Positions 257 to 21,120 of a stretch of DNA of 64,000 bases are shown one piece after another. Below the pieces are notes generated by a model. The model was not told where the DNA came from and did no database searches. It worked only from the letters and a program-made list of their open reading frames with translations. Every line of letters starts with the position of its first letter. The stretch's first letter is position 1. Source of the DNA: Candidatus Kryptobacter tengchongensis (GTDB lineage: Bacteria > Bacteroidota > Ignavibacteria > Kryptoniales > Kryptoniaceae); NCBI GenBank assembly GCA_001485605.1, contig FAON01000012.1, positions 62,001 to 126,000 on the forward strand, given 5' to 3'. A program made the translations under genes and the position numbers.

Positions 257-3200
257 ATGAAGTTGAAAATTTTCTTATTTTTTACTCTTTTTGCTCTCAT
301 AAATTTCTCTGCACTTGGGCAAAACCCACTTAAAAGCCAAGGAATAAATAAAGCAACACTTGAGAATATAAGCGATGAACCTGGGATACCAATATGCGCG
401 ACAATTTTCCTCAATGATGAAATAGCGAAACAAGCAGTTGAAAATACAAAAATTTATAATCCTGAAGTTTATGCGTTGATGCAAAAGGCGATGCTTGAAA
501 AAACATTGCCATTAAAAACTGCCGATACCGTTGGAACACGGAGAAACTTTTTCGTTTACAATCTCGTGACAAACCAATTTGATAATATTGTCGCAGAATT
601 AAGAGCGATTGGGAATTTAACTCAAGTTTGGGTGGATACAGTAGAACTTTACAATCAACATGTCACGCAGGTAGAAGTTAACGCAATTTTAAATGCTCTT
701 GAGAATCAAACCCCACCAGCTTCACGAAATCCCAACCTTGGGATAGTTGCACTTGACCATCAGTACTTCGGGAATCCGCCAAATAAAGATGGCGATGGGA
801 AAACAGATTTTCTAATAACCGATATAAAAGACGGATGGCAACCTGGTGGAAGTTATGTGGCTGGATTTTTCTTCTCTTGGGATCAAACAAATAACCAAGG
901 AAGCAACCAAAGGGACATACTTTATATTGATTCGTATCCTGGGATTTATTACAATAACACGAGAGATCCTCAAAGACCATTAAGCACCCTTGCCCATGAA
1001 TATCAACATTTAATCCATTACAACTATGATAAAGATGAAGCAACTTTTGTAAACGAAGGATTATCAGAAGTCGCAGAATATATCTGCGGGTATCCGCTCA
1101 GAAGTCCATCAAGATATTTCGCCAAGACAGATGTTCCTCTCTTTGATTGGAATAACATAAGCGGAGATGTTCTGGCTGATTATTCAAGAGCTGCCCTTTT
1201 CACACTTTATTACACAGAACAACTTGGAGATGATGTTTTAAAACTTGTTGTGCAAGAGCCCGGGAACGGGACTGCTGGTTTGAACAATGTCTTCATGAGT
1301 AAGGGAACAAATTTCACACAAATTTTAACAAATTGGTTCATTGCAAATTATCTAAATGATAAAACTGTTAACCCAAGATATGGATATACATATCAAATTT
1401 CTGGTAAACCGAAAGAAGCAAACTACCACACAGACCCAAATGTTAATGTTTTAAATCAAACTGTCTATGGTTATGCTGTTGATTACATTGCCTTTGCCTA
1501 TGGCGAGTCACTAAAGGTAACATTCACAACAAGTTCTTCACTTGTAAATATAAAAGCCATAAAACTTGGTTCATCAATTAAACAAGTTGTTGATGTAACC
1601 CCCGGGGTACAATTTGAGGTCCCAGAATTTGGTTCAACTGTGCAAATAGTTGTTTTCGTTGTGATAAATACAGGCTCAACATCTGCAACTTATTCTTACA
1701 GCTCCCAAGGGAGGCAAGTTGCTTTTTATGTTGAAACAGCCTACGATGATGGAATACCTGATAGATTCGCAGGTAACGCGAATTTTCTTGGTTTTGGAAA
1801 TAACAGGGCTGGGTTTGGTTGGGCTGTGAAATTTATCCCAGAAGTTAACACTAACCAACTCGTTTCTGCTAAAATACTTGCTGCATTTGCTCAGGAATTT
1901 TCAGGTTCAAACATCCCTGCTGATGCCCCAAAGGATTTCTACTTCCATATTTGGGCTGATAATAATGGTCTTCCAGGAAATGACATCATAACACCATTCA
2001 TTTACTCAACAAACAGACCTTCTTATGATGGACAGTTTTTAACAATTGATCTGACACCATATGCCTCGCAACTTAAAAATCTTGGAACAATTTATATTGG
2101 TTTTATTGAAAATGACACCATAGGAACTTATGTTGGGATGGATAGCACAACGAAAGCAAATTATACCTATGCTTTCTTTGGACCAACTTATCCAAACAAT
2201 CCAAACACATGGGTTCCGATGGAAAATTTGTCAGTGTCAAGTGGTGGAACGACCGTTCCTCTAAGGGGTTGGAATATGATGATGAGGGCAACATTTGCCT
2301 ATACTGATACGACGAAACCAAAGCTTATTGTTGGGTTTTTCCAAAATCCTATCTTTAGCGAGCGACTTGATGTCTTCGTTGCAAGTTCGTCAAAGCTCAA
2401 TAAAAACAATCTTTCAGGGACATTAACACAAGGTTCAAATGTTGTTAATCTACTTTTCCAACCAGTTCCAAATTCAAACGATAAAGTTTTCGTTGATAAT
2501 AACATTACTCTGACATCCAGCGGGACGATTGAGATAAGGGTTAGAGGAACAACAAAATATGGTTTCATTTATTCCGATACGGCGTATACATTTAATGTTC
2601 AATTTCTGCAATCGGTAAACGGTGGATATATCGCTTCAACAGATGGGAAAATGGAGGTTGAATTCGGGAAGAATTCACTCAGAGACAATTTGTATGTGAT
2701 TGCGTTTGCTGGCAATTCAGATGTTTTGAACACTGAAATTGAAAGATCAATTAATACAAAATTGAGTCAAATTTATACGCTAAGCCCCATTGGTTATGAG
2801 CTTAACAAACCAGCAACACTTAAAATTTATCTTGACCCCAATAAAATTTCATCCATACCATTAGATGAATTAACAATTGCATATTGGGATGGAACGCAAT
2901 GGGTACGGTTAAACTCCGTCGTTTCAAACTCAGGTGATTTTATCACAGCTGAAATAAGCAAATTGGGGCACTTCATAGTGACGAGGAAAAGTGAAGTTAC
3001 TGAAGTTAGCAGTCCTATGGTTGATATACCTCAAAGATTTGAACTTTATCAAAATTACCCAAATCCATTTAACCCATCAACGAGCATAACATTTGATCTT
3101 CCTGAAGACGCCTTTGTTACACTTAAAATTTACAACATCATCGGACAGGAGATAAGAACGATTGTGAATGATTTTAAAAACGCTGGAAGATACACAGTTG

Positions 3201-3310
3201 TATGGGATGGGAAAGATAATAGTGGTAAAATTGCCCCATCTGGAATTTATCTTTATAGAATAACGGCTGGAAAATTTAGCAAAACATTAAAAATGGTTTT
3301 GTCAAAATAA
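257..3310 (+). CDS. Secreted zinc metalloprotease with type IX sorting domain
   Basis: A 1017-residue exported protein. A signal peptide covers about residues 1-22 (hydrophobic run ending SALGQ). The catalytic region carries H247-E248-x-x-H251 followed by N266-E267-G-L-S-E271. HExxH plus a downstream NEGLSE is the gluzincin layout seen in M30 (hyicolysin)-like peptidases, in which the later Glu is the third zinc ligand. A long beta-rich middle follows. Residues 927-1017 form a C-terminal sorting domain (LYQNYPNPFNPS start, then GQEIRTIV and SGIYLYRI) that directs export through the type IX system in related bacteria. The start is fixed by AAGGAGGG at 244-251, five bases before ATG. A TPR lipoprotein follows 16 bases downstream. 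The substrate is unknown. Confidence 0.8.
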   Translation: MKLKIFLFFTLFALINFSALGQNPLKSQGINKATLENISDEPGIPICATIFLNDEIAKQAVENTKIYNPEVYALMQKAMLEKTLPLKTADTVGTRRNFFVYNLVTNQFDNIVAELRAIGNLTQVWVDTVELYNQHVTQVEVNAILNALENQTPPASRNPNLGIVALDHQYFGNPPNKDGDGKTDFLITDIKDGWQPGGSYVAGFFFSWDQTNNQGSNQRDILYIDSYPGIYYNNTRDPQRPLSTLAHEYQHLIHYNYDKDEATFVNEGLSEVAEYICGYPLRSPSRYFAKTDVPLFDWNNISGDVLADYSRAALFTLYYTEQLGDDVLKLVVQEPGNGTAGLNNVFMSKGTNFTQILTNWFIANYLNDKTVNPRYGYTYQISGKPKEANYHTDPNVNVLNQTVYGYAVDYIAFAYGESLKVTFTTSSSLVNIKAIKLGSSIKQVVDVTPGVQFEVPEFGSTVQIVVFVVINTGSTSATYSYSSQGRQVAFYVETAYDDGIPDRFAGNANFLGFGNNRAGFGWAVKFIPEVNTNQLVSAKILAAFAQEFSGSNIPADAPKDFYFHIWADNNGLPGNDIITPFIYSTNRPSYDGQFLTIDLTPYASQLKNLGTIYIGFIENDTIGTYVGMDSTTKANYTYAFFGPTYPNNPNTWVPMENLSVSSGGTTVPLRGWNMMMRATFAYTDTTKPKLIVGFFQNPIFSERLDVFVASSSKLNKNNLSGTLTQGSNVVNLLFQPVPNSNDKVFVDNNITLTSSGTIEIRVRGTTKYGFIYSDTAYTFNVQFLQSVNGGYIASTDGKMEVEFGKNSLRDNLYVIAFAGNSDVLNTEIERSINTKLSQIYTLSPIGYELNKPATLKIYLDPNKISSIPLDELTIAYWDGTQWVRLNSVVSNSGDFITAEISKLGHFIVTRKSEVTEVSSPMVDIPQRFELYQNYPNPFNPSTSITFDLPEDAFVTLKIYNIIGQEIRTIVNDFKNAGRYTVVWDGKDNSGKIAPSGIYLYRITAGKFSKTLKMVLSK

Positions 3311-6287: not shown

Positions 6288-7778
6288 TTATTTTATCATT
6301 TCCATTTTGTTTTGTTGAATAAATTTTCCTGCCTGTAAGCGAACAAAATAGACCCCACTTGGCAAACCCTTTGCCTCAAAAACAACTGAATATTCGCCTG
6401 AGTTTAATTCCTCATTCACCAGCGTTGCTACTTCTCTGCCAAGGATATCAAAAACTTTCAGGGTTACATGTTCTCGCTGCGGAAGGGAAAAGCGAATTGT
6501 AGTTGTTGGGTTAAATGGATTAGGATAATTTTGATAAAGTTTAAATTCTAATGGAGATCCGCTAACACTTTCAACTTTCGTGATCGGTGAAATCGTTACA
6601 CCGTAAACATCTCCATCCGTAAGATAAAGTTGATCGCCCCGAAAGCTTAATCTAAACCTTGTCGTAAAAGCAAGATATTTTCCATCTGCATAAACGGCAA
6701 AGCAAGAAACTGGATTTTTTATACCAAGGGTATCAAAAACTACAAATTCGTCACTCTTTGGACTTAAAGATAAATCAAAAAAGCGACCAATAACTTTTGA
6801 TGTTAAGTGATTTCCTGAAAATTCAAACCCTGTGCATGTAAACAATATCTCATCGTTGTTCACCACAGCGTAAGGAAGAATATGAGCATTAGAAGTAATC
6901 AAATTTCGTCCGCTTTGAGTTACTCCATCAGGACTTACAAATCTCGCATAAATTTTCCAACCGGTTATTTCCTCATCTGGGAAAAAGCAAATAAATTTTG
7001 CCCCGTCAAAAGTAACGAATAGCGGGTTATCGCTTGGTTCAGAACTTCCATCAATTAAAAAAGCTCCACCAATTTGATATCCACTTTCACTGATTATTTG
7101 TCCCCAAACTTCATTGTCATAGTCGCCTGCCTCTTTAATGAAACAAATCAGATATTTAGAACTGCCATAAGCAAGCGAATATTCTTTTCGCGCAGGAACA
7201 TTGGATATCTGAAAAGAACCTTCCATGTATCCATCCGGTCGTATAAATGTCCCAGCTAAATAATAAGCACCCGCGCTTTTAATTGCAAAAACAAGAAAAT
7301 ACTTATTGAGCGCTGAATTAAAATGAAGAGTTGAAACACCGCTTAAATAACATCGCAAAGTTGAATCTGAATATAAATTGCTTAACTGGAAAGTTTTAGC
7401 ATCAATAAAGCGATATTTAATTCCACCATATTCTCCATCTGTCCACACAACAAGAAAGCGACTGCCGTCAAAAGCAACCTGTGGGATACCAACTTCTAAA
7501 GCAGTATCTGGTATATTGGTTATCCCAAATAAAATTGGAGATCCTATTAAAGAGTTATCAACTTTTGATAAAAACTGCCCAATTATTTGAGCTCCACCTG
7601 TTGGTAATTCCTTCCGCATAATAACAAGATATTTTTCGCTGTCAAATGCACCCGCAAGTGCAAAAACGGAATCACTTCCAATTTCAACTAAAAATTCTGT
7701 TCCAATTTTTGGAACTTGGGAATTTAAAAGGTTCAGCGCGAATAAAAAAGTTAGAAAAATAAAAATTGAGGTTCTCAT
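6288..7778 (-). CDS. Secreted protein with type IX sorting domain
   Basis: 496 residues. Signal peptide at about 1-21 (MRTSIFIFLTFLFALNLLNSQ). The body, about 25-400, is a series of beta-strand repeats of the form YLVIMRKE, FLVVWTDGEYGG, YFLVFAIKSAGAYY, YLICFIKEAGDYDNEVWGQ and FICFFPDE, spaced like blades of a propeller, with no catalytic motif that I recognise. Residues 411-496 are a sorting domain (KLYQNYPNPFNPTTT start, LGREVATLV, PSGVYFVRLQAGK). An AAGGAG lies seven bases before the ATG. It is probably a surface or secreted protein. It is followed by the small frame-shifted exported gene, and upstream by the terminator of the ccm genes. Confidence 0.75.
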   Translation of the reverse strand: MRTSIFIFLTFLFALNLLNSQVPKIGTEFLVEIGSDSVFALAGAFDSEKYLVIMRKELPTGGAQIIGQFLSKVDNSLIGSPILFGITNIPDTALEVGIPQVAFDGSRFLVVWTDGEYGGIKYRFIDAKTFQLSNLYSDSTLRCYLSGVSTLHFNSALNKYFLVFAIKSAGAYYLAGTFIRPDGYMEGSFQISNVPARKEYSLAYGSSKYLICFIKEAGDYDNEVWGQIISESGYQIGGAFLIDGSSEPSDNPLFVTFDGAKFICFFPDEEITGWKIYARFVSPDGVTQSGRNLITSNAHILPYAVVNNDEILFTCTGFEFSGNHLTSKVIGRFFDLSLSPKSDEFVVFDTLGIKNPVSCFAVYADGKYLAFTTRFRLSFRGDQLYLTDGDVYGVTISPITKVESVSGSPLEFKLYQNYPNPFNPTTTIRFSLPQREHVTLKVFDILGREVATLVNEELNSGEYSVVFEAKGLPSGVYFVRLQAGKFIQQNKMEMIK

Positions 7779-7993: not shown

Positions 7994-10303
7994 TTATCCC
8001 TTTACTTCAGATATTCTTCTGACCATTGAAACTATAAATCCAGCAAGGATAACAAGAACACCAAACCAAACAAGATTTATAAAAGGTTTAACACTTGCTT
8101 CAATTACAAGAACTTCTACTGGCTCACTCTGAACCTGCAAGTTAGCATCATCGGAGCGAAAACTTACTGCAATCTGTCCCGATTCAACATTTAGATTTAT
8201 AAATGTTAACTGTTTATCTCCGACCTTAACCGCTTCTGGCATCGGCATGTTGTTCCGATAATAAATCTTCGGAATGATTTGCTGTTTTTTGCCTTTGTAT
8301 GTAACTTCAATTACCGCACCTATTGCGAAATCCTGTCCGGCCATCATTTTTGCCATATCATCCGAGGTCATATCAAAGCGAATAAATTTCAATGTGTAAT
8401 CCCCAACGGTTCGCTCTTGATCTTTGCTTAGTATAATGATATCTCCAGTTGCATGCGGGTTAAATCCAGAGCTCTTTTCCAAACTCATTGGAGAAAGATA
8501 AAGATCGTTCATAAGCATATTTTTGACAAGGAAAGCTGGAAGTTTGGGATTGCTGAATATATCATAATTCAGTAAACTAAAGATATAAGGATGTCTCATC
8601 ACACCCTGATTATATTCACTGAAATACATCTGCAACGGTGCAATGAATGAATCACCATCCTTCTCAACTTTTACATTGTAAGCAACTCTTTCTTTATCAA
8701 TTTTTTGATTCCCAATATAGGTCAATTTATATCCAAAAGCGCTTATCGTTTGATTCTTTGGAAGTGAGACAACTTGAGTTTTATCATATTTTGTTGATGC
8801 GATAACTCCCAGAAGGAAAAGCCCAACCCCCACATGAGTTAAAGAAGCTCCTATATACTTTGGATTACCACGAGCAATTTTATAAGCAATTCTCAAATTA
8901 ACAAAGAAAGCAAAAGAAGATGTTAAGACAAATAGAGCTATTAAAATTTCTCTGACACCAATAATTATTAAAATTGAGGTAAAAATCGTTGATGCTGCTG
9001 TGGGAAATACAAGTGTTTTCATTAATGCTTCTGGCTTCGTTTTTCTCCACCACATAACTTGAGCAAGCCCAATCAATAGAGCCATTACTATCCCAAGTGG
9101 AAGCGTTGTTTTATTGTAATAAGAAACATCAACAGCGCTTGCTTTCCCCTGGAGAATTTTTGTTATTATCGGGGAAGATGTCCCTACTATCACAAAGCCA
9201 GCAATTATAACAAGTATAACAGAAGCAAGGAACAAATTATACTCCCTTGACAAGAGATCTGATTCAACTTTAACCTTTGGAATCTCCTTCCTTCTGGCAA
9301 ACAATAATCCGAAACCTATTCCTGTGAAGATCACCATCAATGAAATTAAAAGTGAATAAACCCACATTCCAGGATCAACGAATGAATGAACAGATGTATC
9401 TCCAAGAACTCCACTTCTTGTTAAAAATGTGCTATACAAAACCAGGACAAAAGCCAAGATTGACATTCCCAAATTCCATCGTGTGAAAGCTCCTGTTCTT
9501 CTTTGAACATACATTGTGTGGATTGTTCCAACTGCGATAAGCCATGGAACTAAAGATGAATTTTCAACAGGGTCCCATCCCCAGAATCCACCCCATCCGA
9601 GTGTCTCATAAGCCCAAAAACCACCTATTGCAAGACCAGCGCCAAGCGTTAAGGCAGCAAAAATCGTCCACGGCATCGCTGGTTTAACCCATGTCAAATA
9701 CTCTCGTCTTAAAAGCGCTGTTATGGCATGAGAATATGGTATCGCCATTGAAGCAAAGCCAATAAAAATTATCGGTGGATGGATCACCATCCAAAAATTT
9801 TGAAGCAAGGGATTAAGACCTCGTCCTTCCGGCGGGATAAAACCTTCATGAACTTGACCAGGCCATGTTTCCCACACATACTCAAATGGACTCTTAACAA
9901 TTAAAATCAGCAATAGAAAAACCTTAACAAGTGAGTAAATGCTCATAACTTCCGGTTCATATCCATTACGCCTTGCATAGCTCATTAAAAATAACCCAAG
10001 TATTGCAGTATAAAAAGTCCATAACATAAAACTTCCTTCCTGACCAGCATAAAAAGTTGAAATTAGAAGTGGCGTTGATAAATCAGTTGAGCTATAACTC
10101 CAGACATACGTATATTGAAATTGATGCGTTAAAATCAAATATAGCAGAAAGGCAGAGGCAAGTATTACTGTAATTGCTGATATGTGATAGCTTAACCTCG
10201 CCTTTTCAATCAAATGTTTTCGCCCTCTATATGAAAGATAATAGGCAATTGTCGCAAAGAGAGCAGTCATAAAAGCAATATATATTAAAATTCTGCCTAA
10301 CAT
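7994..10303 (-). CDS. ccmF: Cytochrome c maturation protein CcmF (haem lyase subunit)
   Basis: 769 residues, a polytopic membrane protein that passes haem from CcmE to apocytochrome c on the outer face of the cytoplasmic membrane. The tryptophan-rich WWD haem-handling segment (WGGFWGWDPVENSSLVPWL) is clear near residues 235-250, with flanking TM helices and the conserved HPP in FWMVIHPPIIFIG. The C-terminal ~250 residues form a large periplasmic domain before a last TM helix (FGVLVILAGFIVSMVRR). It is longer than a typical proteobacterial CcmF of about 650 residues. It is the last gene of ccmC-D-E-F, 22 bases after ccmE, and a terminator follows. Confidence 0.93.
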   Translation of the reverse strand: MLGRILIYIAFMTALFATIAYYLSYRGRKHLIEKARLSYHISAITVILASAFLLYLILTHQFQYTYVWSYSSTDLSTPLLISTFYAGQEGSFMLWTFYTAILGLFLMSYARRNGYEPEVMSIYSLVKVFLLLILIVKSPFEYVWETWPGQVHEGFIPPEGRGLNPLLQNFWMVIHPPIIFIGFASMAIPYSHAITALLRREYLTWVKPAMPWTIFAALTLGAGLAIGGFWAYETLGWGGFWGWDPVENSSLVPWLIAVGTIHTMYVQRRTGAFTRWNLGMSILAFVLVLYSTFLTRSGVLGDTSVHSFVDPGMWVYSLLISLMVIFTGIGFGLLFARRKEIPKVKVESDLLSREYNLFLASVILVIIAGFVIVGTSSPIITKILQGKASAVDVSYYNKTTLPLGIVMALLIGLAQVMWWRKTKPEALMKTLVFPTAASTIFTSILIIIGVREILIALFVLTSSFAFFVNLRIAYKIARGNPKYIGASLTHVGVGLFLLGVIASTKYDKTQVVSLPKNQTISAFGYKLTYIGNQKIDKERVAYNVKVEKDGDSFIAPLQMYFSEYNQGVMRHPYIFSLLNYDIFSNPKLPAFLVKNMLMNDLYLSPMSLEKSSGFNPHATGDIIILSKDQERTVGDYTLKFIRFDMTSDDMAKMMAGQDFAIGAVIEVTYKGKKQQIIPKIYYRNNMPMPEAVKVGDKQLTFINLNVESGQIAVSFRSDDANLQVQSEPVEVLVIEASVKPFINLVWFGVLVILAGFIVSMVRRISEVKG

Positions 10304-10325
10304 TTTTCACACCAAAATTTAATTT

Positions 10326-10712
10326 TTATTTATATTGTTTCAATGCATCTGCAGATTGATATTTTGATGGACACTTCGTCAGAATCTCTTTAGATTCAAA
10401 AACCCCATTCACATAATGACCTTTTACAACGACATGGGATGCGATCTCAAAATTATTTGGTTTTGCACCATGATGAACAACTTTAACAATATCTCCATTA
10501 TCATCCTTGAGATAAAAAACGAACTGATTTGTGCTCGCATCATAATAACTTTCCTTCTCCCTAACCCATTCACCAACGATTTGAACTTTTTTTGCCGTCT
10601 TTTTCGCTTCTTCTATAGTCACATACTTAACATTGCTTTCCATGAATGAGTAAGCCCCAAAAATTATAAAACCGGCAATTAAAACGGAACCAACAACAAT
10701 TTTAAGCTTCAT
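10326..10712 (-). CDS. ccmE: Haem chaperone CcmE, CxxxY variant
   Basis: 128 residues: one N-terminal TM anchor (about 4-24) and a periplasmic OB-fold (VQIVGEWVREKE, FVFYLKDDNGDIVKVVHHG, ASHVVVKGHYVNGVFESKEILTKC). CcmE binds haem covalently and delivers it to CcmF. Classical CcmE has His in HxxxY; here the equivalent place is C114-P-S-K-Y118, the CxxxY form known from a variant System I in some sulfate reducers and archaea. The C-terminal tail is short (ten residues after the Tyr). The ATG overlaps the end of ccmD (ATGA), so the two are translationally coupled. Confidence 0.9.
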   Translation of the reverse strand: MKLKIVVGSVLIAGFIIFGAYSFMESNVKYVTIEEAKKTAKKVQIVGEWVREKESYYDASTNQFVFYLKDDNGDIVKVVHHGAKPNNFEIASHVVVKGHYVNGVFESKEILTKCPSKYQSADALKQYK

Positions 10713-10876
10713 CTTTCAACCTCCTCTTTGTTTTCAAGCTTTGAAAATTCATCCTCAAGCTTTTTCAACTTAACATCAACCCTTATAAGATAAGCAAAGA
10801 CAAATAGCCAAACAATTAAAGCGATAATTAAAACAAGATAGATTGAGTTCTTCTCAAGAAATTCATAAATGCTCAA
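10709..10876 (-). CDS. ccmD: Small membrane protein CcmD
   Basis: A 55-residue protein starting at TTG (10876-10874), with GGAGG seven bases before it. The start overlaps the ccmC stop by two bases, and the stop overlaps the ccmE start as ATGA. It has a short N-terminal stretch (MSIYEFLEKNS), one TM helix at about residues 12-31 (IYLVLIIALIVWLFVFAYLI) and a charged helical tail (DVKLKKLEDEFSKLENKEE). Size, topology and position between ccmC and ccmE are those of CcmD, which stabilises the CcmABC release complex and CcmE. It would be missed by an ATG-only or minimum-length search. Confidence 0.85.
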   Translation of the reverse strand: MSIYEFLEKNSIYLVLIIALIVWLFVFAYLIRVDVKLKKLEDEFSKLENKEEVER

Positions 10877-11559
10877 CTTTGAACCTCCCGATATATTTTG
10901 TTTTCAATTTTAATTTTCAAAATCTCCGTTCTTGAACGAAGACTGAAAATCCATAAATATACAAGCGTAAACCCGATTAAAGAAGCAAAGAAAAGAATCC
11001 TCATATTTGGGTCCATCTTGAAACTCACAACTGGTCCAGCTCCTTCAGGGTCACCCTTTGAACCCGGATGAAGACCTGGCATAATTCTCGGCATAATGAA
11101 AATAAAGAATGGAACCGTAACAAAAGCAATTATTGAATAAACTGCTGAAAGCGTTGCTTTCCTTTCTTCAATCTCAATTGCAGACCTTAAAACAAAATAA
11201 GCCCCATAAATCAAAAGAAGGACAAAAATTGATGTCTCACGTGGATCCCAATTCCAAAAAGAACCCCAGTTAAATTTCGCCCAGATTGAACCAGTTATAG
11301 TGGTGATGAAGCAAAACAAAAATCCAATTTCTGCAGAAGCAACAGATTTAATGTCATTGTATATATCTTTTGACTTAAGATAACGAATTCCATAAAGCAT
11401 AGACACAAAAAAAGCAATTACACTTAACCACGCAGAAGGCACATGAAGGAAAATTATTCTTGCCCTTTCCCCAAGCCCGGGGATAAATCCAATTGGAATT
11501 ATAAATGCAAGGACTGTGATCACTCCAATATATAAGCTAAGCAAAATTTTCCAAATCAT
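10873..11559 (-). CDS. ccmC: Haem handling protein CcmC
   Basis: 228 residues with six predicted TM helices. CcmC loads haem onto CcmE. The WWD motif is at residues 98-110 (NWGSFWNWDPRET) and the two external axial histidines are H39 (FLHVPSAW) and H164 (MPGLHPGSKG), all three elements present. It is followed by ccmD with an overlapping start. A gap of 161 bases separates it from ccmB upstream, so a separate promoter for ccmC-D-E-F is possible. Confidence 0.95.
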   Translation of the reverse strand: MIWKILLSLYIGVITVLAFIIPIGFIPGLGERARIIFLHVPSAWLSVIAFFVSMLYGIRYLKSKDIYNDIKSVASAEIGFLFCFITTITGSIWAKFNWGSFWNWDPRETSIFVLLLIYGAYFVLRSAIEIEERKATLSAVYSIIAFVTVPFFIFIMPRIMPGLHPGSKGDPEGAGPVVSFKMDPNMRILFFASLIGFTLVYLWIFSLRSRTEILKIKIENKIYREVQS

Positions 11560-11658
11560 TAAGTTTTTCTCTTTTGGTTTATTTTCATTTAAATTTCAAA
11601 TATCAATTCGTATGCCAGAGATAAAAAGATTGATTTTTATTCAACTATACACAATTCA

Positions 11659-11673
11659 GGACACCTTGTGTCC
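11659..11673. promoter_or_regulatory. Inverted repeat in the ccmB-ccmC gap
   Basis: GGACAC-CTT-GTGTCC, a perfect 6-bp inverted repeat with a 3-base centre, about 100 bases upstream of the ccmC start in the only sizeable gap of the ccm cluster. No T-run follows on the minus strand, so it does not look like an intrinsic terminator. It could be an operator or an mRNA hairpin. No clear promoter could be read beside it. Confidence 0.35.
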
Positions 11674-11720
11674 AAATTCTCAACACTCACTCAATAAGTA
11701 AAACAAAACTGACACATAAC

Positions 11721-12386
11721 TTATTCCTTCCAAATGTAATCAAATAAAAGGTACGATGCGATTATAACAACAAAAAAATAAGAGATTAAAATCCTTAAAT
11801 GCCCTGCGGTTTCAGTAAGAGTGGTTCCTTGAGTTGAAAGTTGGGTTATATTTATCGCTGTTATCAAAAGAGGTAAAAGCACTGGAAAAGAAAGCACCGG
11901 ATAAAGTGTCCCTTTTGTGTTCGCCTTCGCAATTATCGCTGCAATTATCGTTGACGCCGAAGCAAGCCCCACGCCTCCAAGAATCAACCCAACAAGGAAG
12001 ACATCAAAGCTTTTAATTTTAAAATTTTCCATGGTTAAAAGATAAGCTATGACGACAAAAAAATTGATCCCAAAAATTAGAACAAGATTGAAAAGCAACT
12101 TACCAAAATATACAACGCTTGGTCGTGTCGCAAGCTGGAGAAAGATAACAGTTCCCCTATCTTCTTCACTTACAAATGTTCTTGAAAGCCCTGACATGGC
12201 AGAGAAAAATATCACAACCCAAAGCAATCCCGAAAGCAACTCAGCACTTATGATCTCACCAGCAGTTGCAAATAAGATCATTGAAATAGTAACAACAACA
12301 AACATGATCAAAGCATTTAAAGCATACCTTGTCCTCAGCTCCGACTTTAAATCCTTCAAAAAAATTGCCCAGATGCTACTTAACAA
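11721..12386 (-). CDS. ccmB: Haem exporter ABC permease CcmB
   Basis: 221 residues, an integral membrane protein with six hydrophobic segments. The N-terminal stretch with KDLKSELRTRYALN followed by MFVVVTISMILFA, and the loop LSRTFVSEEDRGTVIFLQLATRP, are the conserved CcmB landmarks. With CcmA and CcmC it forms the ABC complex that releases holo-CcmE. Its start overlaps the end of ccmA by 11 bases. Only the short tail (LLFDYIWKE) follows the last TM helix. Confidence 0.92.
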   Translation of the reverse strand: MLSSIWAIFLKDLKSELRTRYALNALIMFVVVTISMILFATAGEIISAELLSGLLWVVIFFSAMSGLSRTFVSEEDRGTVIFLQLATRPSVVYFGKLLFNLVLIFGINFFVVIAYLLTMENFKIKSFDVFLVGLILGGVGLASASTIIAAIIAKANTKGTLYPVLSFPVLLPLLITAINITQLSTQGTTLTETAGHLRILISYFFVVIIASYLLFDYIWKE

Positions 12387-13029
12387 TTTGATTTCTTACC
12401 CTTTGTTTTAATTCATCAAGATTTATAACATCATCACACATTTGAAGCTCTTCTGGTTCATTAGTTGCAACGATCAAAATTCCTTTTTTCTTTTGTTCCT
12501 CAGCTATAGCCCAAACCATCTCAACCCCTTCTATGTCAAGGTTTGATGTTGGTTCATCAAGTATTAAGAGAATAGGCTCATGAAGAAGCGCACAAGCATA
12601 TTTCAAGCGCTGTTTCATCCCGGAAGAATAGCCACGGACAAGATCATAACGGCGAGAGTAAAGGTTTACACGCTTTAAAACATCTTCAATTTTTTCTTTA
12701 TAATTTTTCAAACCCCTTATCCTTGCAAGTATTTCAAGATTTTCATATCCCGTGAATTCATCATAAATCTGCAGGTAAGGAGCAACAAATCCAACATATT
12801 TAAACCAGTCAATTTTATCTATCTTTTTACCATCAATTTGATAAATTACTTCACCAGAGCTTGGGCTCAAAAGACCTGCGATTATCTTGACAAGTGTTGA
12901 TTTCCCAGAACCATTCTTTCCAGCAATAGCAAGGGATGAGCCAACACCAAGCTCAAAATTTACCGAATCAAAAACAAGCAAACGCCCAAAACTTTTCCTT
13001 ATGTTCTTTCCTATCAATTTGAATTCCAC
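12376..13029 (-). CDS. ccmA: Haem exporter ABC ATPase CcmA
   Basis: 217 residues, a single ABC ATPase domain. Walker A is G37-KNGSGKS-T45, the signature is YSSGMKQRLKYACAL, and Walker B is ILLILDEPTSNLD, followed by the H-loop position occupied by N (VATNEPEE). ATP hydrolysis by CcmAB drives release of haem-loaded CcmE from CcmC. It overlaps ccmB by 11 bases and begins 18 bases after a secreted protease gene on the same strand, with no terminator in between, so the operon may start well upstream. Confidence 0.9.
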   Translation of the reverse strand: MEFKLIGKNIRKSFGRLLVFDSVNFELGVGSSLAIAGKNGSGKSTLVKIIAGLLSPSSGEVIYQIDGKKIDKIDWFKYVGFVAPYLQIYDEFTGYENLEILARIRGLKNYKEKIEDVLKRVNLYSRRYDLVRGYSSGMKQRLKYACALLHEPILLILDEPTSNLDIEGVEMVWAIAEEQKKKGILIVATNEPEELQMCDDVINLDELKQRVRNQIVK

Positions 13030-13047: not shown

Positions 13048-14712
13048 TCATTTTCTTATCAAAACGAACTTACCGGTCTTTTCACTTCCACCTGAATTAA
13101 CGAAATAAATATAAACCCCGCTTTTCACAAGTTGACCGAGATTATTTCTCCCATTCCAGCTCACAAAATAATTTCCGAAATTAAATTCGGGTTTCAACTT
13201 TTCCGAATACACAAGGTCAAGTCCAACAGTGAAAATTTTTAATTCAACTTCATCAGCTCCAGAATCAACAGGGATCAAAATTTTTTCAATCCCATCCGCA
13301 TAAAAAGGATTTGGGAAAACATTTCTATCTTTGACAAATGCAACTTGCAAATTTAAGATATTTAAATTCCCCCAATTATCAAAATCTGGAACAATTAACT
13401 TTACCCTTAAACCATTTCCAAGTGATGTATAACCTTCGCTATAGGTTCCAGTGGTTATGTGATACTGGAAAATGAATTCATCTTCAGAGCGAGCAAACCC
13501 AGAATTTAAATTCACATTTGAAATCACAGCAACCACTGTGTCATTTCGCCAGATGAACATATAATACTGCGTGGAAAATGCTCCTGCGGAATTTTTTACG
13601 CTCGCTTCGTTTGATGTCATAATAACTGGTTGTGTTTCAAATCTAACCTCCGGGTAATTCGCTCCTTCTTTATAATACCCCGCTCTCGCCCTTCTTCCTG
13701 TGTAATAATTCCAAAGCGAAAACTCAACAAATTCACGCTTTAAACTGCTGTTAAAGGAATTTAAACTGAGCTCAAGCGAAGCAAGAGCTGAGTGATTTCT
13801 TATATTTTCCCATGCTTTAACAATCACCTCATGCGTGAACCTTTCCTGCAAGAATATCCCCAAAACCACAAGGTCATAGCCATCATGGAAATAAATTGGG
13901 GTGCTCGTTGCTCTGAAAAATCTTGGTATATATGCATAATAATCATTTACATCATCAAAAACAGCTTCCTCAAGCCAAGTTGAGGTCATCTCGTAAAACC
14001 ATATATCTTCCTCCCAAAGTCCATAGGATAAAAGTTGAACTGCATGACCAAATTCATGCGCAAGCGTTACCTTAAGAGCGTTTATTCCACGAGTATAGTA
14101 GGAAGCTTCATAATAAGAGTTGTCAATTCGCATAAAGCTTATATATCTTTTTGCAACCCCGTTTCTTGGGAGCGGATTTAAATAATCAAAGACTGTTTCT
14201 CCGTAAAGCCCCTCCTGAAGATTTTGAATGTAAATATCATACTCAACCCCACCCCCGATGCCACCATCGTTGAAATCAAACTCAAAGCCGAAAAAATTCA
14301 CCACGACATTAAAAACTGAATCAATATACTTTGAAACTGAATCAACATACATCTTCCACGAGTTTGGAATTTTCCTCCCATACTCATCAAAAAGAAATGG
14401 TTCATTTACGCCCGTTGTATCAAAATGAATTCTAAATTTCCCGCTTTGAGATAAAACGCTTGTTTGAAGTTGCGGTCTTTCAAGTGACTTTTTTATATTG
14501 CTCTTTTGAATCTCGTTAAACTTATCCCAGTTTTTACCAGCTTCAACATAAAGTCTGAAACCACATTTACCCGTATCAAAAGGCTTAAAGTCAAAGGGTT
14601 TATCAACTTCAATTCCAGATCTATCGCAAATCGTGTAATAAATTTGCTCAATTTTCTTATCCTGCGAAAGCAAAAAACCAGCAAGTAAGAAAAGGAAAAC
14701 AAATTTTCTCAT
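13048..14712 (-). CDS. Secreted metalloprotease, MXAN_6640-like
   Basis: 554 residues. Signal peptide about 1-16 (MRKFVFLFLLAGFLLS). The zinc site is H219-E-F-G-H223, followed about 25 residues on by TSTWLEEAVFDDVNDYYAY. That WxE-E...DDVNDY pattern after HEFxH is the layout of the MXAN_6640 family of putative metalloproteases. The last ~90 residues (NPFYADGIEKILIP, then NNLGQLVKSGVYIYFV, ending GKFVLIRK) form a divergent type IX/FlgD-like sorting domain. Its ATG overlaps the stop of the FG-GAP gene upstream (4 bases), so the two are coupled. The catalytic call is from motifs only; the substrate is unknown. Confidence 0.75.
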   Translation of the reverse strand: MRKFVFLFLLAGFLLSQDKKIEQIYYTICDRSGIEVDKPFDFKPFDTGKCGFRLYVEAGKNWDKFNEIQKSNIKKSLERPQLQTSVLSQSGKFRIHFDTTGVNEPFLFDEYGRKIPNSWKMYVDSVSKYIDSVFNVVVNFFGFEFDFNDGGIGGGVEYDIYIQNLQEGLYGETVFDYLNPLPRNGVAKRYISFMRIDNSYYEASYYTRGINALKVTLAHEFGHAVQLLSYGLWEEDIWFYEMTSTWLEEAVFDDVNDYYAYIPRFFRATSTPIYFHDGYDLVVLGIFLQERFTHEVIVKAWENIRNHSALASLELSLNSFNSSLKREFVEFSLWNYYTGRRARAGYYKEGANYPEVRFETQPVIMTSNEASVKNSAGAFSTQYYMFIWRNDTVVAVISNVNLNSGFARSEDEFIFQYHITTGTYSEGYTSLGNGLRVKLIVPDFDNWGNLNILNLQVAFVKDRNVFPNPFYADGIEKILIPVDSGADEVELKIFTVGLDLVYSEKLKPEFNFGNYFVSWNGRNNLGQLVKSGVYIYFVNSGGSEKTGKFVLIRK

Positions 14713-16853
14713 TTGAATTCGCCATTTTTGTTTATCAAAAATCCAAGCCCTCCATTTGTTCCATTAAGCAAAATTAAATCTGGATAACCATCATAATTCA
14801 CATCAGCAACACCGATTGAGTTAATTTTATCTCCAGAGCTGTAAATCTGCGTTTTTTCAAATTTTTCATCTTTGTTTATGTAAAGGTAAAATTTATTCCT
14901 TAATTTATCAAAAACAACAAAGTCCTTTTTAAAATCCCCGGTGAAATCCGCAACTTTTAGAAGTTTATGAGCGGAAAGGTGGATATGAGTATCTATTCTT
15001 TTCCTTAGTTTAAATTTCCCCAACCCATCATTAAAGAAGAGATTTATCTCTCCATCTGAAATTTTCACTGTTGAATAATCGTAATAGACAAGTATATCTT
15101 GATAACCATCACCGTTGAAATCATCAATATAAAGAAAAGCACGCCTTATTAACCTATTCAAATTCACCGAATAATCCCTCACATATTCTCCCTCCTTTTT
15201 TCTGATAAAAATGTTAAATTTAACACTGCCCCCATCCCGATTGATAAGCGCAATATCAAAGAAACCATCTCTGTTAAAATCACCAACTGCAAAGGCGATG
15301 ACCTTTGTGCTGTCAATTTCTTTTATGGTGATCTCATTAAATTCGGACTGACCCTCTGGCTTTATCAAAATTAGATTTGAATCAGATATGGAAAGAAAAA
15401 TGGCAGGTGTTTTATCACTGGACAAACCCATAAAAACTGGCTTCGGCTTATCAAAATTGTATTTAAAAATTTCCGTTACTTTCCCCTTTCCCTCAAACTT
15501 AAAAATAGAAACATTTCCAGTCTCGTAATTTGAGCATAAAAGATAATTAAGATTTGAAAAAGAGAATAACTTAACATCTGTAAATGCTCCATCCCCTCTA
15601 TTCAAAACAATTGAAAAACCATCATTCATAGAGTAAATGAGTGGGAAACCTAAACTATCCCCAACAGTTATAAAATCAATGCATCCATCCCTATCAAAGT
15701 CTGCAACCGCAAGGTCAGATGAATTTGATCCCACAGCAAGCCATGAATTTTCAAATGTTTTAAATCTATCGCTAGAGTAAAAAATTCTAAGTCTATTTCT
15801 AACGGAATCAAGAGAGATGATATCATCCCTTCCGTTTCCGTCAAGGTCTGCACATTCAATATGAGCGGTTCCTTCGCTCAAAAATTCATATCTTTCAAAA
15901 TCAATTCCAGAGTTTATAAAAATAAACAGTTTCTCCCCATTGCTTACCGCAACATCTTTAAAACCATCACCATTAAAATCACCAATTGAAATCATTAATG
16001 GCTTTGGGATTTTAAATTTAAATTTTAAATTTATCCCCGCTTGTGTAGTGTAATAAAATTGAACCTCGCCAAGATAATAAAAAGAGATAACATAATCAAA
16101 AAAGCCATCGTTGTTTAAATCTGCGACCACAAAATCATTTGGTTCTTCTGGAAGTTTATAATTATATGTGAGCCCGAACTTTCCATCCCCCCTTCCGTAT
16201 GAGATAACGAGCAAATTATTTAGCCAATCAATTCCAGCAAGATCTGGGACATCGTCATAGTTTAAATCTTGAATTTGAATTTTTTTGAAAGGCGTCTTCG
16301 GGAGAAGATTAACGGGATTTGAGAATTGATTTAACTTTGTTTGATAATTTACCGTTATACCAAGCATTATCTTTCCGACCGTTATCACATCTTTAAGCCC
16401 ATTTAAATCAACATCTGAGCAAATAAGCATATCTGGATAAACCCCCGTTTCAAAAAAAGCAAATTTTCTAAAACCAAGCGTATCTCTTTTAAAAATTTCA
16501 ACTGTTGATCTTGCTCTGTAAACCGCAAGGATTTCAGATACACCGTCATTATCAATATCATTTAACTTAACATCTGCTGGCATTTCTCTTACCGGGATGC
16601 TGAAGTAAAAGTTAAATTCTCCTTTTCCATTATTTTCAAGACAAGTTATCGCACGACGTGAGGAAACAACTATATCGTAAAAATTATCTCCATTTAAATT
16701 TCCGATTGAAAAAGTGGATGAACCTTCGGGAAGAGGAAATTCACTTATAAAAAAAATTGGGGAAAATCTATTTTGAGAAGTTAAAACCTCAATGTAAAAC
16801 GTGAACAAAAAAAGGAAAAGTCTATGGATTTTCAGCTCTTTGTTTTCTGGCAT
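14709..16853 (-). CDS. FG-GAP/VCBS repeat protein
   Basis: 714 residues, exported by an N-terminal hydrophobic segment (RLFLFLFTFYIEVLTSQ, about 11-27). At least twelve calcium-loop motifs of the DxNxDGxxD type are spread evenly, for example NLNGDNFYDIVV, DIDNDGVSEIL, DLNNDGFFDYVI, DFNGDGFKDVAV, DFDRDGCIDFIT, DFNRDGFFDIAL, DFNGDGYQDILV and DVNYDGYPDLIL, which fits an integrin-like beta-propeller. No sorting domain is seen at the C-terminus, unlike its neighbours. The start overlaps the thioesterase end by 32 bases and the stop overlaps the metalloprotease start, so it sits in a tightly coupled set. Confidence 0.75.
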   Translation of the reverse strand: MPENKELKIHRLFLFLFTFYIEVLTSQNRFSPIFFISEFPLPEGSSTFSIGNLNGDNFYDIVVSSRRAITCLENNGKGEFNFYFSIPVREMPADVKLNDIDNDGVSEILAVYRARSTVEIFKRDTLGFRKFAFFETGVYPDMLICSDVDLNGLKDVITVGKIMLGITVNYQTKLNQFSNPVNLLPKTPFKKIQIQDLNYDDVPDLAGIDWLNNLLVISYGRGDGKFGLTYNYKLPEEPNDFVVADLNNDGFFDYVISFYYLGEVQFYYTTQAGINLKFKFKIPKPLMISIGDFNGDGFKDVAVSNGEKLFIFINSGIDFERYEFLSEGTAHIECADLDGNGRDDIISLDSVRNRLRIFYSSDRFKTFENSWLAVGSNSSDLAVADFDRDGCIDFITVGDSLGFPLIYSMNDGFSIVLNRGDGAFTDVKLFSFSNLNYLLCSNYETGNVSIFKFEGKGKVTEIFKYNFDKPKPVFMGLSSDKTPAIFLSISDSNLILIKPEGQSEFNEITIKEIDSTKVIAFAVGDFNRDGFFDIALINRDGGSVKFNIFIRKKEGEYVRDYSVNLNRLIRRAFLYIDDFNGDGYQDILVYYDYSTVKISDGEINLFFNDGLGKFKLRKRIDTHIHLSAHKLLKVADFTGDFKKDFVVFDKLRNKFYLYINKDEKFEKTQIYSSGDKINSIGVADVNYDGYPDLILLNGTNGGLGFLINKNGEFK

Positions 16854-17361
16854 TTTTGAGCTCTTCTTTATGCTTCAATCTTTGTTGCCGTCTTATCAGT
16901 GCCTCCTCATATCTTCTTTTTTCATCTTCAGTTTCGGGGACTATCGGGGGCACAGGGATAGGTTTACCGTTTTCATCAATCGCAACGAAGGTAAGATAAG
17001 CAGAATTCGCATGCCTTAATTCACCAGTGAGCGGGTTCATTGCAAAAACCTTTACACCAACTTCCATTGAAGTTCTAAAAACACGATTCACAGACGCCTT
17101 TAAAATCACAACTTCACCAATTTTTATCGGGCATAGGAAATTTAACTCGTCAACACTTGCAGTTACAACAACCTTACCAGCATGCTTCATTGCGGACATC
17201 GCTGCACATATATCAATCCAATGCATTAATCTCCCACCAAGCAAGAAACCAAACGGATTTGCATCGCTTGGAAGTATAAGTTCCGTCATTTCAACCTGCG
17301 AATCCTTTACATATTTAGCCCCCTCTATTCTATCTCCCCGTTCGCAACTCTTTTCCAACAT
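16822..17361 (-). CDS. Acyl-CoA thioesterase, hotdog fold
   Basis: 179 residues. The hotdog signature NPFGFLLGGRLMHWIDICAAMSA, followed by ASVDELNFLCPIKIGE and a VGVKVFAMNPLTGE strand, matches YciA/BACH-type acyl-CoA thioesterases, which hydrolyse long-chain acyl-CoA in the cytoplasm. A charged C-terminal tail (EDEKRRYEEALIRRQQRLKHKEEL) extends the domain. The start overlaps bamD by 32 bases; no better in-frame ATG lies before the conserved KDSQVEMTEL segment. The fatty-acyl specificity cannot be read from the sequence. Confidence 0.85.
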   Translation of the reverse strand: MLEKSCERGDRIEGAKYVKDSQVEMTELILPSDANPFGFLLGGRLMHWIDICAAMSAMKHAGKVVVTASVDELNFLCPIKIGEVVILKASVNRVFRTSMEVGVKVFAMNPLTGELRHANSAYLTFVAIDENGKPIPVPPIVPETEDEKRRYEEALIRRQQRLKHKEELKNARKQRAENP

Positions 17362-18112
17362 AAAATTTAGCTTCTTCTTTTATTTTCCTCACCTTACCAA
17401 TAAGATCACTTGATGGGAATTTCCTCTCAAACTCTTCCGCAATTTTTATTACTTCACTGTAGTTTTCCCTCTTCAATAGACATTCAATCTTCCCCGCATA
17501 AGCCCTTTCAAGGTAATCTGAATCTGGATAACGCTCAATGATTGAATCAAAATAAATCATAGCTGCCCTGTAAAATTCCATCTTCATATAAAATATACCT
17601 GTCTCATAATCTCTTTTCGCAAGCTTGTTGATAAGTTCATGGATCTTCCTTTCCGCATCTTGAACAAACTCACTTGTCGGATGATACTCAATGAATCCTT
17701 GAAGAGCATCAATAGCTTTATAAGTGTATGTCTGATCAAGCTGTGATTTTGGAGAGAGATTATAATAGCAAAGACCAAGTTTATATCTTGCCATTGGAAC
17801 ATATTCACTTGACGGATAACCTCTTATGAGATTTTCATATTCAGATGAAGCAAGCAAATACTCACCACGATTGTAATAACATTCCGCAAGATAAAACTGG
17901 GCATCATCTGCAACCGCACTTCCTGGATATTGAATTAGGATATACTTAAAGTCCTCAATTGCATCAAGATATTTTCTCTTGTCAAATTTATCTTTGCCGA
18001 TTTCAAATCTGTCCTCTGCAGAAAGATTAGCAATCTCTTTTGAGGAGGAGCAACCTATGAGAAAAAACATCACAGGTAAAATTAGAAACGCAACATATTT
18101 TGTTTTCAGCAT
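17330..18112 (-). CDS. bamD: Outer membrane assembly lipoprotein BamD
   Basis: 260 residues, with a lipoprotein signal peptide and lipobox L18-I-G-C21. TPR units follow: FDKRKYLDAIEDFKYILIQYPGSAVADDAQFYLAECYY, LLASSEYENLIRGYPSSEYV, and later FYRAAMIYFDSIIERYPDSD. The spacing and PxSxxxxxAxxxLAxCYY-type repeats are typical of BamD/YfiO, the essential partner of BamA in inserting outer-membrane beta-barrels. Its presence shows a diderm envelope. It lies 17 bases downstream of an unknown membrane protein and overlaps the thioesterase gene. Confidence 0.88.
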   Translation of the reverse strand: MLKTKYVAFLILPVMFFLIGCSSSKEIANLSAEDRFEIGKDKFDKRKYLDAIEDFKYILIQYPGSAVADDAQFYLAECYYNRGEYLLASSEYENLIRGYPSSEYVPMARYKLGLCYYNLSPKSQLDQTYTYKAIDALQGFIEYHPTSEFVQDAERKIHELINKLAKRDYETGIFYMKMEFYRAAMIYFDSIIERYPDSDYLERAYAGKIECLLKRENYSEVIKIAEEFERKFPSSDLIGKVRKIKEEAKFYVGKELRTGR

Positions 18113-20007: not shown

Positions 20008-21120
20008 TTAATCAAGTTCAAAGGACCAAAAATATTTTATGCCTTTATCTTGGAGATACTCCTCAACTTTTGGATGAAAATCGGATGCAACAAAAATAAG
20101 TAATACAGGGGGCTCTCCCTCTCTTTTTTGTATTTCACGCGCCAATTTTAAAAACTTATCTATCTCTTTCTTTGAAGCTCTCATTTTAACCTCGCCGAGA
20201 ATCAAAATTTTACTTCCATTTTTCCTACCCCAGCCAAAAATGTTAATCTGATTGTAATCATCCTTGATCCAGTAGTATTTTCGCACGAGCCTACCTTCAA
20301 CTTCAATGCCATCCTTTTTTAAAAGTTCAGGTAAAACTCTTAACGATTTATCCTCAATTGCAAATCCAATTGAATGGAAAACCCAATCAACCCGCTCCTC
20401 CAGAGTTTTCATTCTTCCAAGCAATATAGCGACAGCCTCTTCAAGCCTTGTTTGAGCCTCTGCAAGTTTATCCAACTTCTCTTCTGTCTTTCTCTGCGCC
20501 TCCGCAAGCTGATCCACTCTAATTGCAAGTTGATTTAATCTCTCTTCTGTCCTTCTCTGCGCCTCCGCAAGCTGATCTAACTTCTCCTCCGTCCTTCTCT
20601 GTGCCTCCGCAAGTTGATCCATCCTAACCGCAAGCTGATCTAACCTCTCCTCCGTCTTCCTCTGCGCCTCCGCAAGCTGATCTAATCTCTCCTCCGTTTT
20701 CCTCTGTGCCTCAGCAAGCTGATCCACTCTAATTGTAAGCTGATTCAGTCTCTCCTCCGTCCTCCTTTGTGCCTCTGTAAGCTGATTTATGCTCTCCCAT
20801 ACTCTCTTAAAGTTTTCCTCCGTCGCCTTCTCAAACGCATCTAACCTCTCCTCAGTCCTCCTCTGCGCCTCCGCAAGTTGGTTTATGCTCTCCCAAACCC
20901 TCCTAAAATTCTCCTCCGTTGCTATCTTAAACGCAATTAAGCTTTCCTCTGTTCTCCTCTGAGCATCGGCAAGATCTTTTATCGCCAACCTCACTTCATC
21001 CATATCAACCATCTTCATCATCTGCTCATAAACCATAGCTATTATCTCAATTAAAGCACTTACCTGTTGCTCGTTAAATGCTTGCAGAAGCTTATTTTTT
21101 ATCTCTGAAATCCCAAGCAT
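20008..21120 (-). CDS. Repeat coiled-coil protein with PD-(D/E)XK nuclease-like domain
   Basis: 370 residues. A short N-terminal helical part is followed by about 190 residues of near-identical coiled-coil units, each beginning LAEAQRRTEERL. Unit lengths in order are 32, 32, 21, 14, 21, 14, 21, 14, then a final degenerate unit. The C-terminal ~120 residues (from AIEDKSLRVLPELL) contain INIFGWGRKNG and ILILGEVKMRASK, where E-x-K after a hydrophobic strand is the PD-(D/E)XK nuclease core, and end in VASDFHPKVEEYL...GIKYFWSFELD. This resembles the DUF3782-type proteins scattered through thermophiles, whose function is unknown. No toxin or phage gene is adjacent. Confidence 0.75.
   Translation of the reverse strand: MLGISEIKNKLLQAFNEQQVSALIEIIAMVYEQMMKMVDMDEVRLAIKDLADAQRRTEESLIAFKIATEENFRRVWESINQLAEAQRRTEERLDAFEKATEENFKRVWESINQLTEAQRRTEERLNQLTIRVDQLAEAQRKTEERLDQLAEAQRKTEERLDQLAVRMDQLAEAQRRTEEKLDQLAEAQRRTEERLNQLAIRVDQLAEAQRKTEEKLDKLAEAQTRLEEAVAILLGRMKTLEERVDWVFHSIGFAIEDKSLRVLPELLKKDGIEVEGRLVRKYYWIKDDYNQINIFGWGRKNGSKILILGEVKMRASKKEIDKFLKLAREIQKREGEPPVLLIFVASDFHPKVEEYLQDKGIKYFWSFELD
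20400..20990 (-). repeat. In-gene direct repeats coding for LAEAQRRTEERL units
   Basis: Tandem coding repeats inside the nuclease-like gene. The unit lengths are 42, 63 and 96 bases (14, 21 and 32 residues). The distal part is three copies of a 105-base super-unit (63+42). On the plus strand the visible marker is the recurring CTCTGCGCCTCCGCAAG-type string with few changes, so the copies are recent or kept alike by recombination. Repeat number is likely to differ between strains. Confidence 0.8.

What the first reader, a model, noticed from the sequence alone, without database searches (positions are those of the whole stretch)
7994..13029. Variant System I cytochrome c maturation: CxxxY CcmE and no CcmH
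ccmA-B-C-D-E-F is complete, but CcmE has C114-P-S-K-Y118 instead of HxxxY and no ccmH or ccmG lies in the cluster. A CcmE with Cys paired with loss of CcmH is an established variant in some archaea and sulfate reducers; seeing it in an FCB-type genome extends it or points to transfer.
Basis: partly seen in the sequence, partly recalled or inferred. Interest (0 to 1): 0.65.

Follow-up and report, generated by a model that had tools for sequence, protein, structure and literature searches.

The report
Cysteine-type heme attachment system, inherited lineage-wide
This is a working-looking bacterial machine for attaching heme to cytochromes, of an already described type that uses cysteine in place of histidine; it is standard across this organism's whole phylum rather than borrowed, though its heme-attaching enzyme carries a doubled outer domain that appears to be undescribed.

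Summary
Window 7994-13029 (minus strand) encodes CcmA-B-C-D-E-F. CcmE has C114-P-S-K-Y118. The genome (98.7% complete) has one CcmE, no CcmH and no ResB. It has six proteins with CXXCH motifs to mature, one CcdA and several unlinked CcmG/TlpA-like thioredoxins. This is the described 'System I*'.

The hints of rarity and transfer fail. All 72 relatives read, from 37 other families of the phylum, have a Cys-type CcmE. CcmH is essentially absent phylum-wide. CcmE and CcmF trees place the window beside its order-mate. The flanking genes are conserved across the class. The system is inherited vertically. Cys-CcmE is also common elsewhere (Coriobacteriia, Desulfovibrionia, Thermoleophilia and others), and some Cys-CcmE loci keep a CcmH-like gene, so Cys and CcmH loss are correlated, not locked; a 2011 review already says so.

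New here: CcmF of the Bacteroidota clade has a doubled last periplasmic domain (236 aa in the window; 200-360 aa in the clade; about 102-122 aa, at most 162, elsewhere). Each half matches the complete single 'beta-cap' of other CcmFs, and the halves match each other (0 of 100 shuffles), so this is a tandem duplication. Whether it does CcmH's job is untested; Desulfovibrio lacks both.

The parts
12376..13029 (-). ccmA, ABC ATPase of the heme-release complex
   Evidence: PF00005 E 2.8e-27; TIGR01189 ccmA 110 bits, below the equivalog cut-off; position next to ccmB
11721..12386 (-). ccmB, permease
   Evidence: PF03379 64 bits against cut-off 24.9
10873..11559 (-). ccmC, heme-handling WWD protein (WGSFWNWD present)
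   Evidence: PF01578 94.6 bits; TIGR01191 117 bits
10709..10876 (-). ccmD, small membrane protein of the alternative CcmD family
   Evidence: TIGR04391 34 bits against cut-off 24
10326..10712 (-). ccmE, heme chaperone with Cys instead of His
   Evidence: PF03100 54.1 bits against cut-off 24.6; only copy in the genome
10359..10373 (-). codons of the C114-P-S-K-Y118 heme-binding motif of CcmE
   Evidence: sequence; aligned with E. coli His-x-x-x-Tyr
7994..10303 (-). ccmF, heme lyase / cytochrome c synthase, 769 aa; WGWD motif at residues 241-244 and His175, 262, 306, 490 conserved
   Evidence: PF16327 and PF01578; residue comparison; AlphaFold model pLDDT 91 with best PDB match CcmF 6zmq, E 4e-22
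8468..8788 (-). CcmF residues 506-612: first copy of the periplasmic beta-cap
   Evidence: matches the single cap of other CcmFs over its whole length, 97.5% probability; 96% against Pseudomonadota caps alone
8081..8467 (-). CcmF residues 613-741: second copy of the periplasmic beta-cap
   Evidence: matches the single cap, 96% probability, and the first copy, 85%, E 6.5e-7, 0 of 100 shuffles; model's best PDB match is the System II synthase CcsBA, marginal
13048..18112 (-). conserved upstream neighbours (MXAN_6640-like metalloprotease, FG-GAP protein, acyl-CoA thioesterase-like protein, BamD/YfiO-like TPR protein); context only, not part of the system
   Evidence: same order next to ccm in other members of the class

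Best explanation
The cluster is a complete, working System I* (CcmH-less, Cys-CcmE) cytochrome c maturation system, inherited vertically in the Ignavibacteria-like part of the Bacteroidota (FCB). CcmABCD moves or releases heme and loads it on the periplasmic domain of CcmE, where Cys114 takes the covalent or near-covalent role that His130 has in E. coli and Tyr118 is the axial ligand. CcmF then takes heme from CcmE at its WWD/P-His site and joins it to the reduced CXXCH cysteines of apocytochromes without CcmH. CcdA plus unlinked TlpA/ResA-like thioredoxins probably keep those cysteines reduced. Shown here: gene content, motif, conserved catalytic residues, lineage-wide distribution, vertical inheritance, and tandem duplication of CcmF's periplasmic beta-cap. 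Inferred from experiments on Desulfovibrio and Methanosarcina: heme attachment to Cys114 and function without CcmH.
For: Genes and motif. One CcmE, no CcmH, no ResB in the genome, so this is the only heme-attachment system found; the third PF01578 protein lies directly upstream of hemA and has no WWD motif. Six proteins with 16 CXXCH motifs, one octaheme, need it. CcdA and thioredoxin-like proteins are present. CcmF keeps WGWD and all four functional histidines and models closely on 6zmq. Phylum: CcmE in 161 of 247 genomes, CxxxY in all 72 relatives read, CcmH over cut-off in 2 of 247, where the hits read are a different, metal-linked protein. Vertical inheritance: CcmF puts the window with its order-mate L042 at 99% support and CcmE at 86%, both inside the Bacteroidota clade; the order HtpX-GDH-BamD-like-thioesterase-FG-GAP-metalloprotease-ccm recurs in part or whole in class members L043, L047, L051, L054, L056 and named Ignavibacterium L112, L125. 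Function precedent: a Desulfovibrio ccm operon without CcmH/CcmG made holocytochrome c in E. coli (PMC3601427); CcmABCEF suffices in Methanosarcina (PMC9084895).
Against: Nothing here is biochemical. D. vulgaris Cys-CcmE was reported to bind heme non-covalently (PMC3884852), so the covalent step is uncertain. The assembly is in 16 contigs and 1.3% may be missing, so absence of CcmH in this one genome is not absolute, though it is supported phylum-wide. CcmA falls short of the ccmA equivalog cut-off.
Confidence: 0.9

Rival explanations
1. The ccm cluster was acquired by this genome by transfer from an archaeal or sulfate-reducer donor.
For: Cys-CcmE was first described in archaea and Desulfovibrio.
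Against: CcmE and CcmF sit inside the Bacteroidota clade beside the same-order relative, not beside Desulfovibrionia or, for CcmE, Methanoperedens; the flanking genes are conserved across the class; the cap duplication is shared with the phylum and absent in Desulfovibrionia; GC at the cluster (0.357) is close to the rest of the window (0.366-0.374).
Confidence: 0.03
2. The enlarged, duplicated beta-cap of CcmF has taken over CcmH's role of holding the apocytochrome at the heme site, which is why this lineage lives without CcmH.
For: The duplication is specific to the clade that lacks CcmH and is phylum-wide; the cap lies over the heme site in CcmF structures (PMC10663686); CcmH is thought to help bind CXXCH there (same paper).
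Against: Desulfovibrionia and Coriobacteriia lack a linked CcmH yet keep a single cap, so a second cap is not needed for CcmH-free function. No apocytochrome-binding evidence.
Confidence: 0.25
3. CcmH is present but too divergent or too fragmentary to be found, so the system is an ordinary CcmFH one with a Cys-CcmE.
For: CcmH-like proteins with altered cysteines do sit beside some Cys-CcmE ccmF genes in other phyla.
Against: A profile built from those altered forms plus E. coli CcmH finds nothing in this genome and nothing in the 40 Bacteroidota ccm neighbourhoods. In the class it finds matches in 8 of 80 genomes; those read belong to a CcmH-like protein of a metal-linked cluster, mostly with zinc ribbons and an FtrD-like neighbour.
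Confidence: 0.07

Closest known systems
System I* (Cys-CcmE Ccm system; Allen et al. 2006, Goddard et al. 2010, reviewed in PMC3601427)
   Same: CPSKY CcmE, CcmABCDF, no CcmH or CcmG in the cluster; Desulfovibrio also needs CcmD (PMC9084895)
   Different: CcmF here has a tandem-duplicated periplasmic beta-cap; Desulfovibrionia CcmF has a single cap of about 105 aa. Bacteroidota is not among the groups named in the review.
Archaeal Ccm of Methanosarcina acetivorans (PMC9084895)
   Same: CxxxY CcmE, no CcmH
   Different: archaeal system lacks CcmD, has split CcmF1/CcmF2 and scattered genes; here CcmD is present, CcmF is one protein and the genes form one cluster
Canonical System I of E. coli (CcmABCDEFGH)
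   Same: CcmABCDEF order, WWD domains and CcmF histidines
   Different: HxxxY CcmE and CcmG/CcmH present in E. coli; single CcmF cap of 103 aa
System II synthase CcsBA
   Same: a periplasmic beta-cap fold; best, marginal, PDB match of the second CcmF cap
   Different: no ResB/CcsB in this genome; CcmF matches 6zmq far better than CcsBA

Membership tests
[quoted passage not shown]
   C114-P-S-K-Y118
System I* cytochrome c maturation | no CcmH in the cluster or genome | tested here: met
   genome 98.7% complete; absence not strictly defining per PMC3601427
System I* cytochrome c maturation | no HxxxY CcmE elsewhere | tested here: met
   single CcmE
System I* cytochrome c maturation | CcmF with WWD motif and P-His/TM-His residues | tested here: met
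System I* cytochrome c maturation | heme attached to the Cys of CcmE and passed to cytochromes | not testable with these tools
   needs heme staining and mutants
System I* cytochrome c maturation | CcmE in the Cys-type rather than the His-type branch | tested here: met
   98% SH-aLRT split; the motif columns were kept in that tree
Canonical System I (CcmFH type) | HxxxY CcmE with CcmG and CcmH | tested here: not met
System II (CcsBA/ResBC) | ResB/CcsB protein | tested here: not met
   no PF05140 match at E 1
Duplicated-cap CcmF (proposed here) | two tandem copies of the periplasmic beta-cap | tested here: met
   profile comparison, 0 of 100 shuffles; lengths

The most novel reading that the evidence does not exclude
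In the Bacteroidota clade, CcmF is a self-sufficient cytochrome c synthase: its tandem-duplicated periplasmic beta-cap holds the apocytochrome CXXCH at the heme site, a job done by CcmH in canonical System I, so heme attachment runs on CcmE(Cys) and a two-cap CcmF alone.
Probability: 0.25. Interest if true: 0.6.

Novelty: new variant of a known kind. Interest (0 to 1): 0.38.

Why it matters
It changes the picture of Cys-type heme delivery from an oddity of archaea and sulfate reducers to the standard heme-attachment machine of a whole bacterial phylum (plus Coriobacteriia and others), while the textbook model rests on E. coli His-CcmE and CcmH. It gives a naturally CcmH-free synthase with a doubled cap, a direct handle on the open question of what CcmH does and how CcmF engages apocytochromes.

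Tried and rejected
Transfer into this genome: rejected by both trees, synteny and the shared CcmF cap. A hidden CcmH: rejected with PF03918 and with a wider profile made from atypical CcmHs. System II: no ResB; the extra PF01578 protein precedes hemA and lacks WWD. The marginal PF03918 hits in class relatives looked at first like a CcmH; those read proved to be zinc-ribbon proteins in a metal-linked (FtrD/FtsX) cluster; the remaining marginal hits were not all read. 'Two caps are needed to lose CcmH' is weakened by Desulfovibrionia and Coriobacteriia. A first shuffle control of the cap comparison had unexplained outliers; it was repeated with length-filtered alignments and a fresh output file each time, and only the repeat is used. 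A fold search with the second cap alone gave only a marginal match. Allen 2006 and Goddard 2010 are not held in the library, so they are cited through reviews.

Full report
OBSERVATION. The cluster is real. On the minus strand, in order of transcription, lie ccmA 12376-13029, ccmB 11721-12386, ccmC 10873-11559, ccmD 10709-10876, ccmE 10326-10712 and ccmF 7994-10303. Pfam supports CcmB, CcmC, CcmE and CcmF above cut-off. NCBIfam supports the alternative CcmD family. CcmA is below its equivalog cut-off and is named by position. CcmE carries C114-P-S-K-Y118, aligned with the heme-binding His-x-x-x-Tyr of E. coli CcmE.

GENOME. The window lies in a 2.68 Mb assembly of 16 contigs, 98.7% complete. 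It has a single CcmE and no CcmH: best PF03918 hit 9.8 bits, E 0.83, and none with a wider CcmH profile. It has no ResB. There are three PF01578 proteins: CcmC, CcmF and one directly upstream of hemA without a WWD motif. A CcdA homologue lies on another contig with no thioredoxin beside it, and several TlpA/ResA-like thioredoxins score on the CcmG model below its cut-off. Six proteins with CXXCH motifs, one with eight, were read among the cytochrome c family hits, so a heme-attachment system is needed and this is the only one found.

DISTRIBUTION. In 247 genomes of the phylum CcmE occurs in 161, including all 61 listed members of the window's class and order, the window's own genome included. 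CcmH passes its cut-off in 2. The CcmE motif was read in 72 other genomes from 37 other families: 30, 40 (9 shared with the first set) and 11 weak matches. All are CxxxY, mostly CPSKY. They come from Ignavibacteria, Kapaibacterium, Melioribacter, Saprospiraceae, Coriobacteriia, Desulfovibrionia, Thermoleophilia, Desulfosporosinus, Myxococcota, Armatimonadota, Acidobacteriota, a Methanoperedens archaeon and others. The sample was chosen by the Cys motif, so it says nothing about how often His-type CcmE occurs.

CYS AND CcmH. Of 67 Cys-CcmE loci with at least 700 bases visible beyond ccmF, 5 have a CcmH-like protein (two Desulfosporosinus, one each labelled Myxococcota, Planctomycetota and unclassified). 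The incomplete Eisenbacteria locus L100 and a Metabacillus plasmid also have one. All 8 His-CcmE loci have CcmH. In the non-Desulfosporosinus cases that were read the LRCxxC motif is altered. So the link is a correlation. The 2011 review (PMC3601427) already states that most variant CcmEs are CPSKY and that about one third of such bacteria have CcmH; it names delta-proteobacteria, Chloroflexi and Firmicutes, not Bacteroidota. Searches of the held library found no paper describing the system in Bacteroidota, which is not proof that none exists.

DESCENT. In a CcmE tree (101 rows, 125 columns) the Cys-type and His-type proteins fall on opposite sides of a 98% branch, and the window pairs with its order-mate L042 (86%) among Ignavibacteria. 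In a CcmF tree (70 rows, 631 columns) the window and L042 pair at 99%, inside a 21-row Ignavibacteria-centred group at 99% and a Bacteroidota-centred clade. A few loci labelled Armatimonadota, Spirochaetota or Acidobacteriota fall inside that clade and may be transfers or misbinned contigs. The Pseudonocardia CcmF, which works with His-CcmE and CcmH, falls on the Cys side of the CcmF tree, so the His/Cys state may have changed more than once. Genes upstream of ccmA in the window (metalloprotease of the MXAN_6640 family, FG-GAP protein, thioesterase, BamD-like protein, GDH, HtpX) recur beside ccm, in part or whole, in L043, L047, L051, L054, L056, L094, L112, L125, L150 and L151. Together these show vertical inheritance. 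The organism's name is not known; 'Ignavibacteria-like' is inferred from its neighbours in the trees.

CcmF. The WGWD motif and His175, 262, 306 and 490 are conserved. The AlphaFold model is good (pLDDT 91, pTM 0.87) and its one strong PDB match is the crystal structure of CcmF, 6zmq (E 4e-22). The last periplasmic segment is 236 aa in the window, 200-360 aa in the clade, and 102-122 aa elsewhere except two Thermoleophilia at 157 and 162; one class member with a short segment of 108 aa was not examined further. Split at residue 612, each half aligns by profile comparison with the whole single cap of other CcmFs (97.5% and 96%) and of Pseudomonadota CcmFs alone (96% and 79%), and the halves align with each other (85%, E 6.5e-7). 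No column shuffle in 100 reached any of these scores. The second half modelled alone (pLDDT 85) has the CcsBA synthase as best PDB match, at a marginal E of 0.02. The cap is therefore a tandem duplication. In published structures the cap lies over the heme site (PMC10663686).

MECHANISM. Most likely CcmABCD loads heme on CcmE at Cys114 with Tyr118 as ligand, and CcmF moves it to reduced CXXCH cysteines without CcmH, as shown for the Desulfovibrio operon in E. coli and for Methanosarcina. The covalent nature of the CcmE link is disputed for D. vulgaris. Whether the second cap replaces CcmH in presenting apocytochrome is a hypothesis; single-cap, CcmH-less Desulfovibrionia show that it is not required in general.

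VERDICT. It is ordinary for its phylum, not a transfer. The doubled cap of CcmF is the part that looks new.

Noticed in passing
L250:1459-2085 (same-genus genome G290), L249:1426-2100, L033:1213-2004, L034:1252-2019, L037:1159-2130, L244:1222-1983: A protein with N-terminal zinc ribbons, one membrane segment and one or two CcmH-like domains with CxC-GxC cysteines sits beside an FtrD-like (PF10080) zinc-ribbon protein and, in several loci, an FtsX-type permease, in scattered members of the class. It looks like use of the CcmH fold in an iron or metal uptake cluster; absent from G000.
   Followed up: partly
L157, L169, L163, L199, L202, L236, L100: CcmH-like proteins encoded beside ccmF in genomes with Cys-CcmE; in most of them the canonical LRCxxC motif is altered.
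   Followed up: partly
L219:1369-1704 (G062); L053:9115-9528: Second, weak CcmE-like protein in two relatives; in L219 no C/HxxxY motif is visible in the open frame.
   Followed up: no
L237 (Pseudonocardia plasmid): His-type CcmE with CcmH, but its CcmF branches among Cys-type CcmFs, so the His/Cys switch may have happened more than once.
   Followed up: no
window 20008-21120: 370-aa protein made largely of tandem 'LAEAQRRTEERLDQ' coiled-coil repeats, with DNA repeats of period 42, 96 and 105.
   Followed up: no
window 257-3310 and 6288-7778: Large secreted proteins with C-terminal sorting-tail similarity; the tail of 6288-7778 passes the type IX (T9SS) model cut-offs, that of 257-3310 only weakly.
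   Followed up: no
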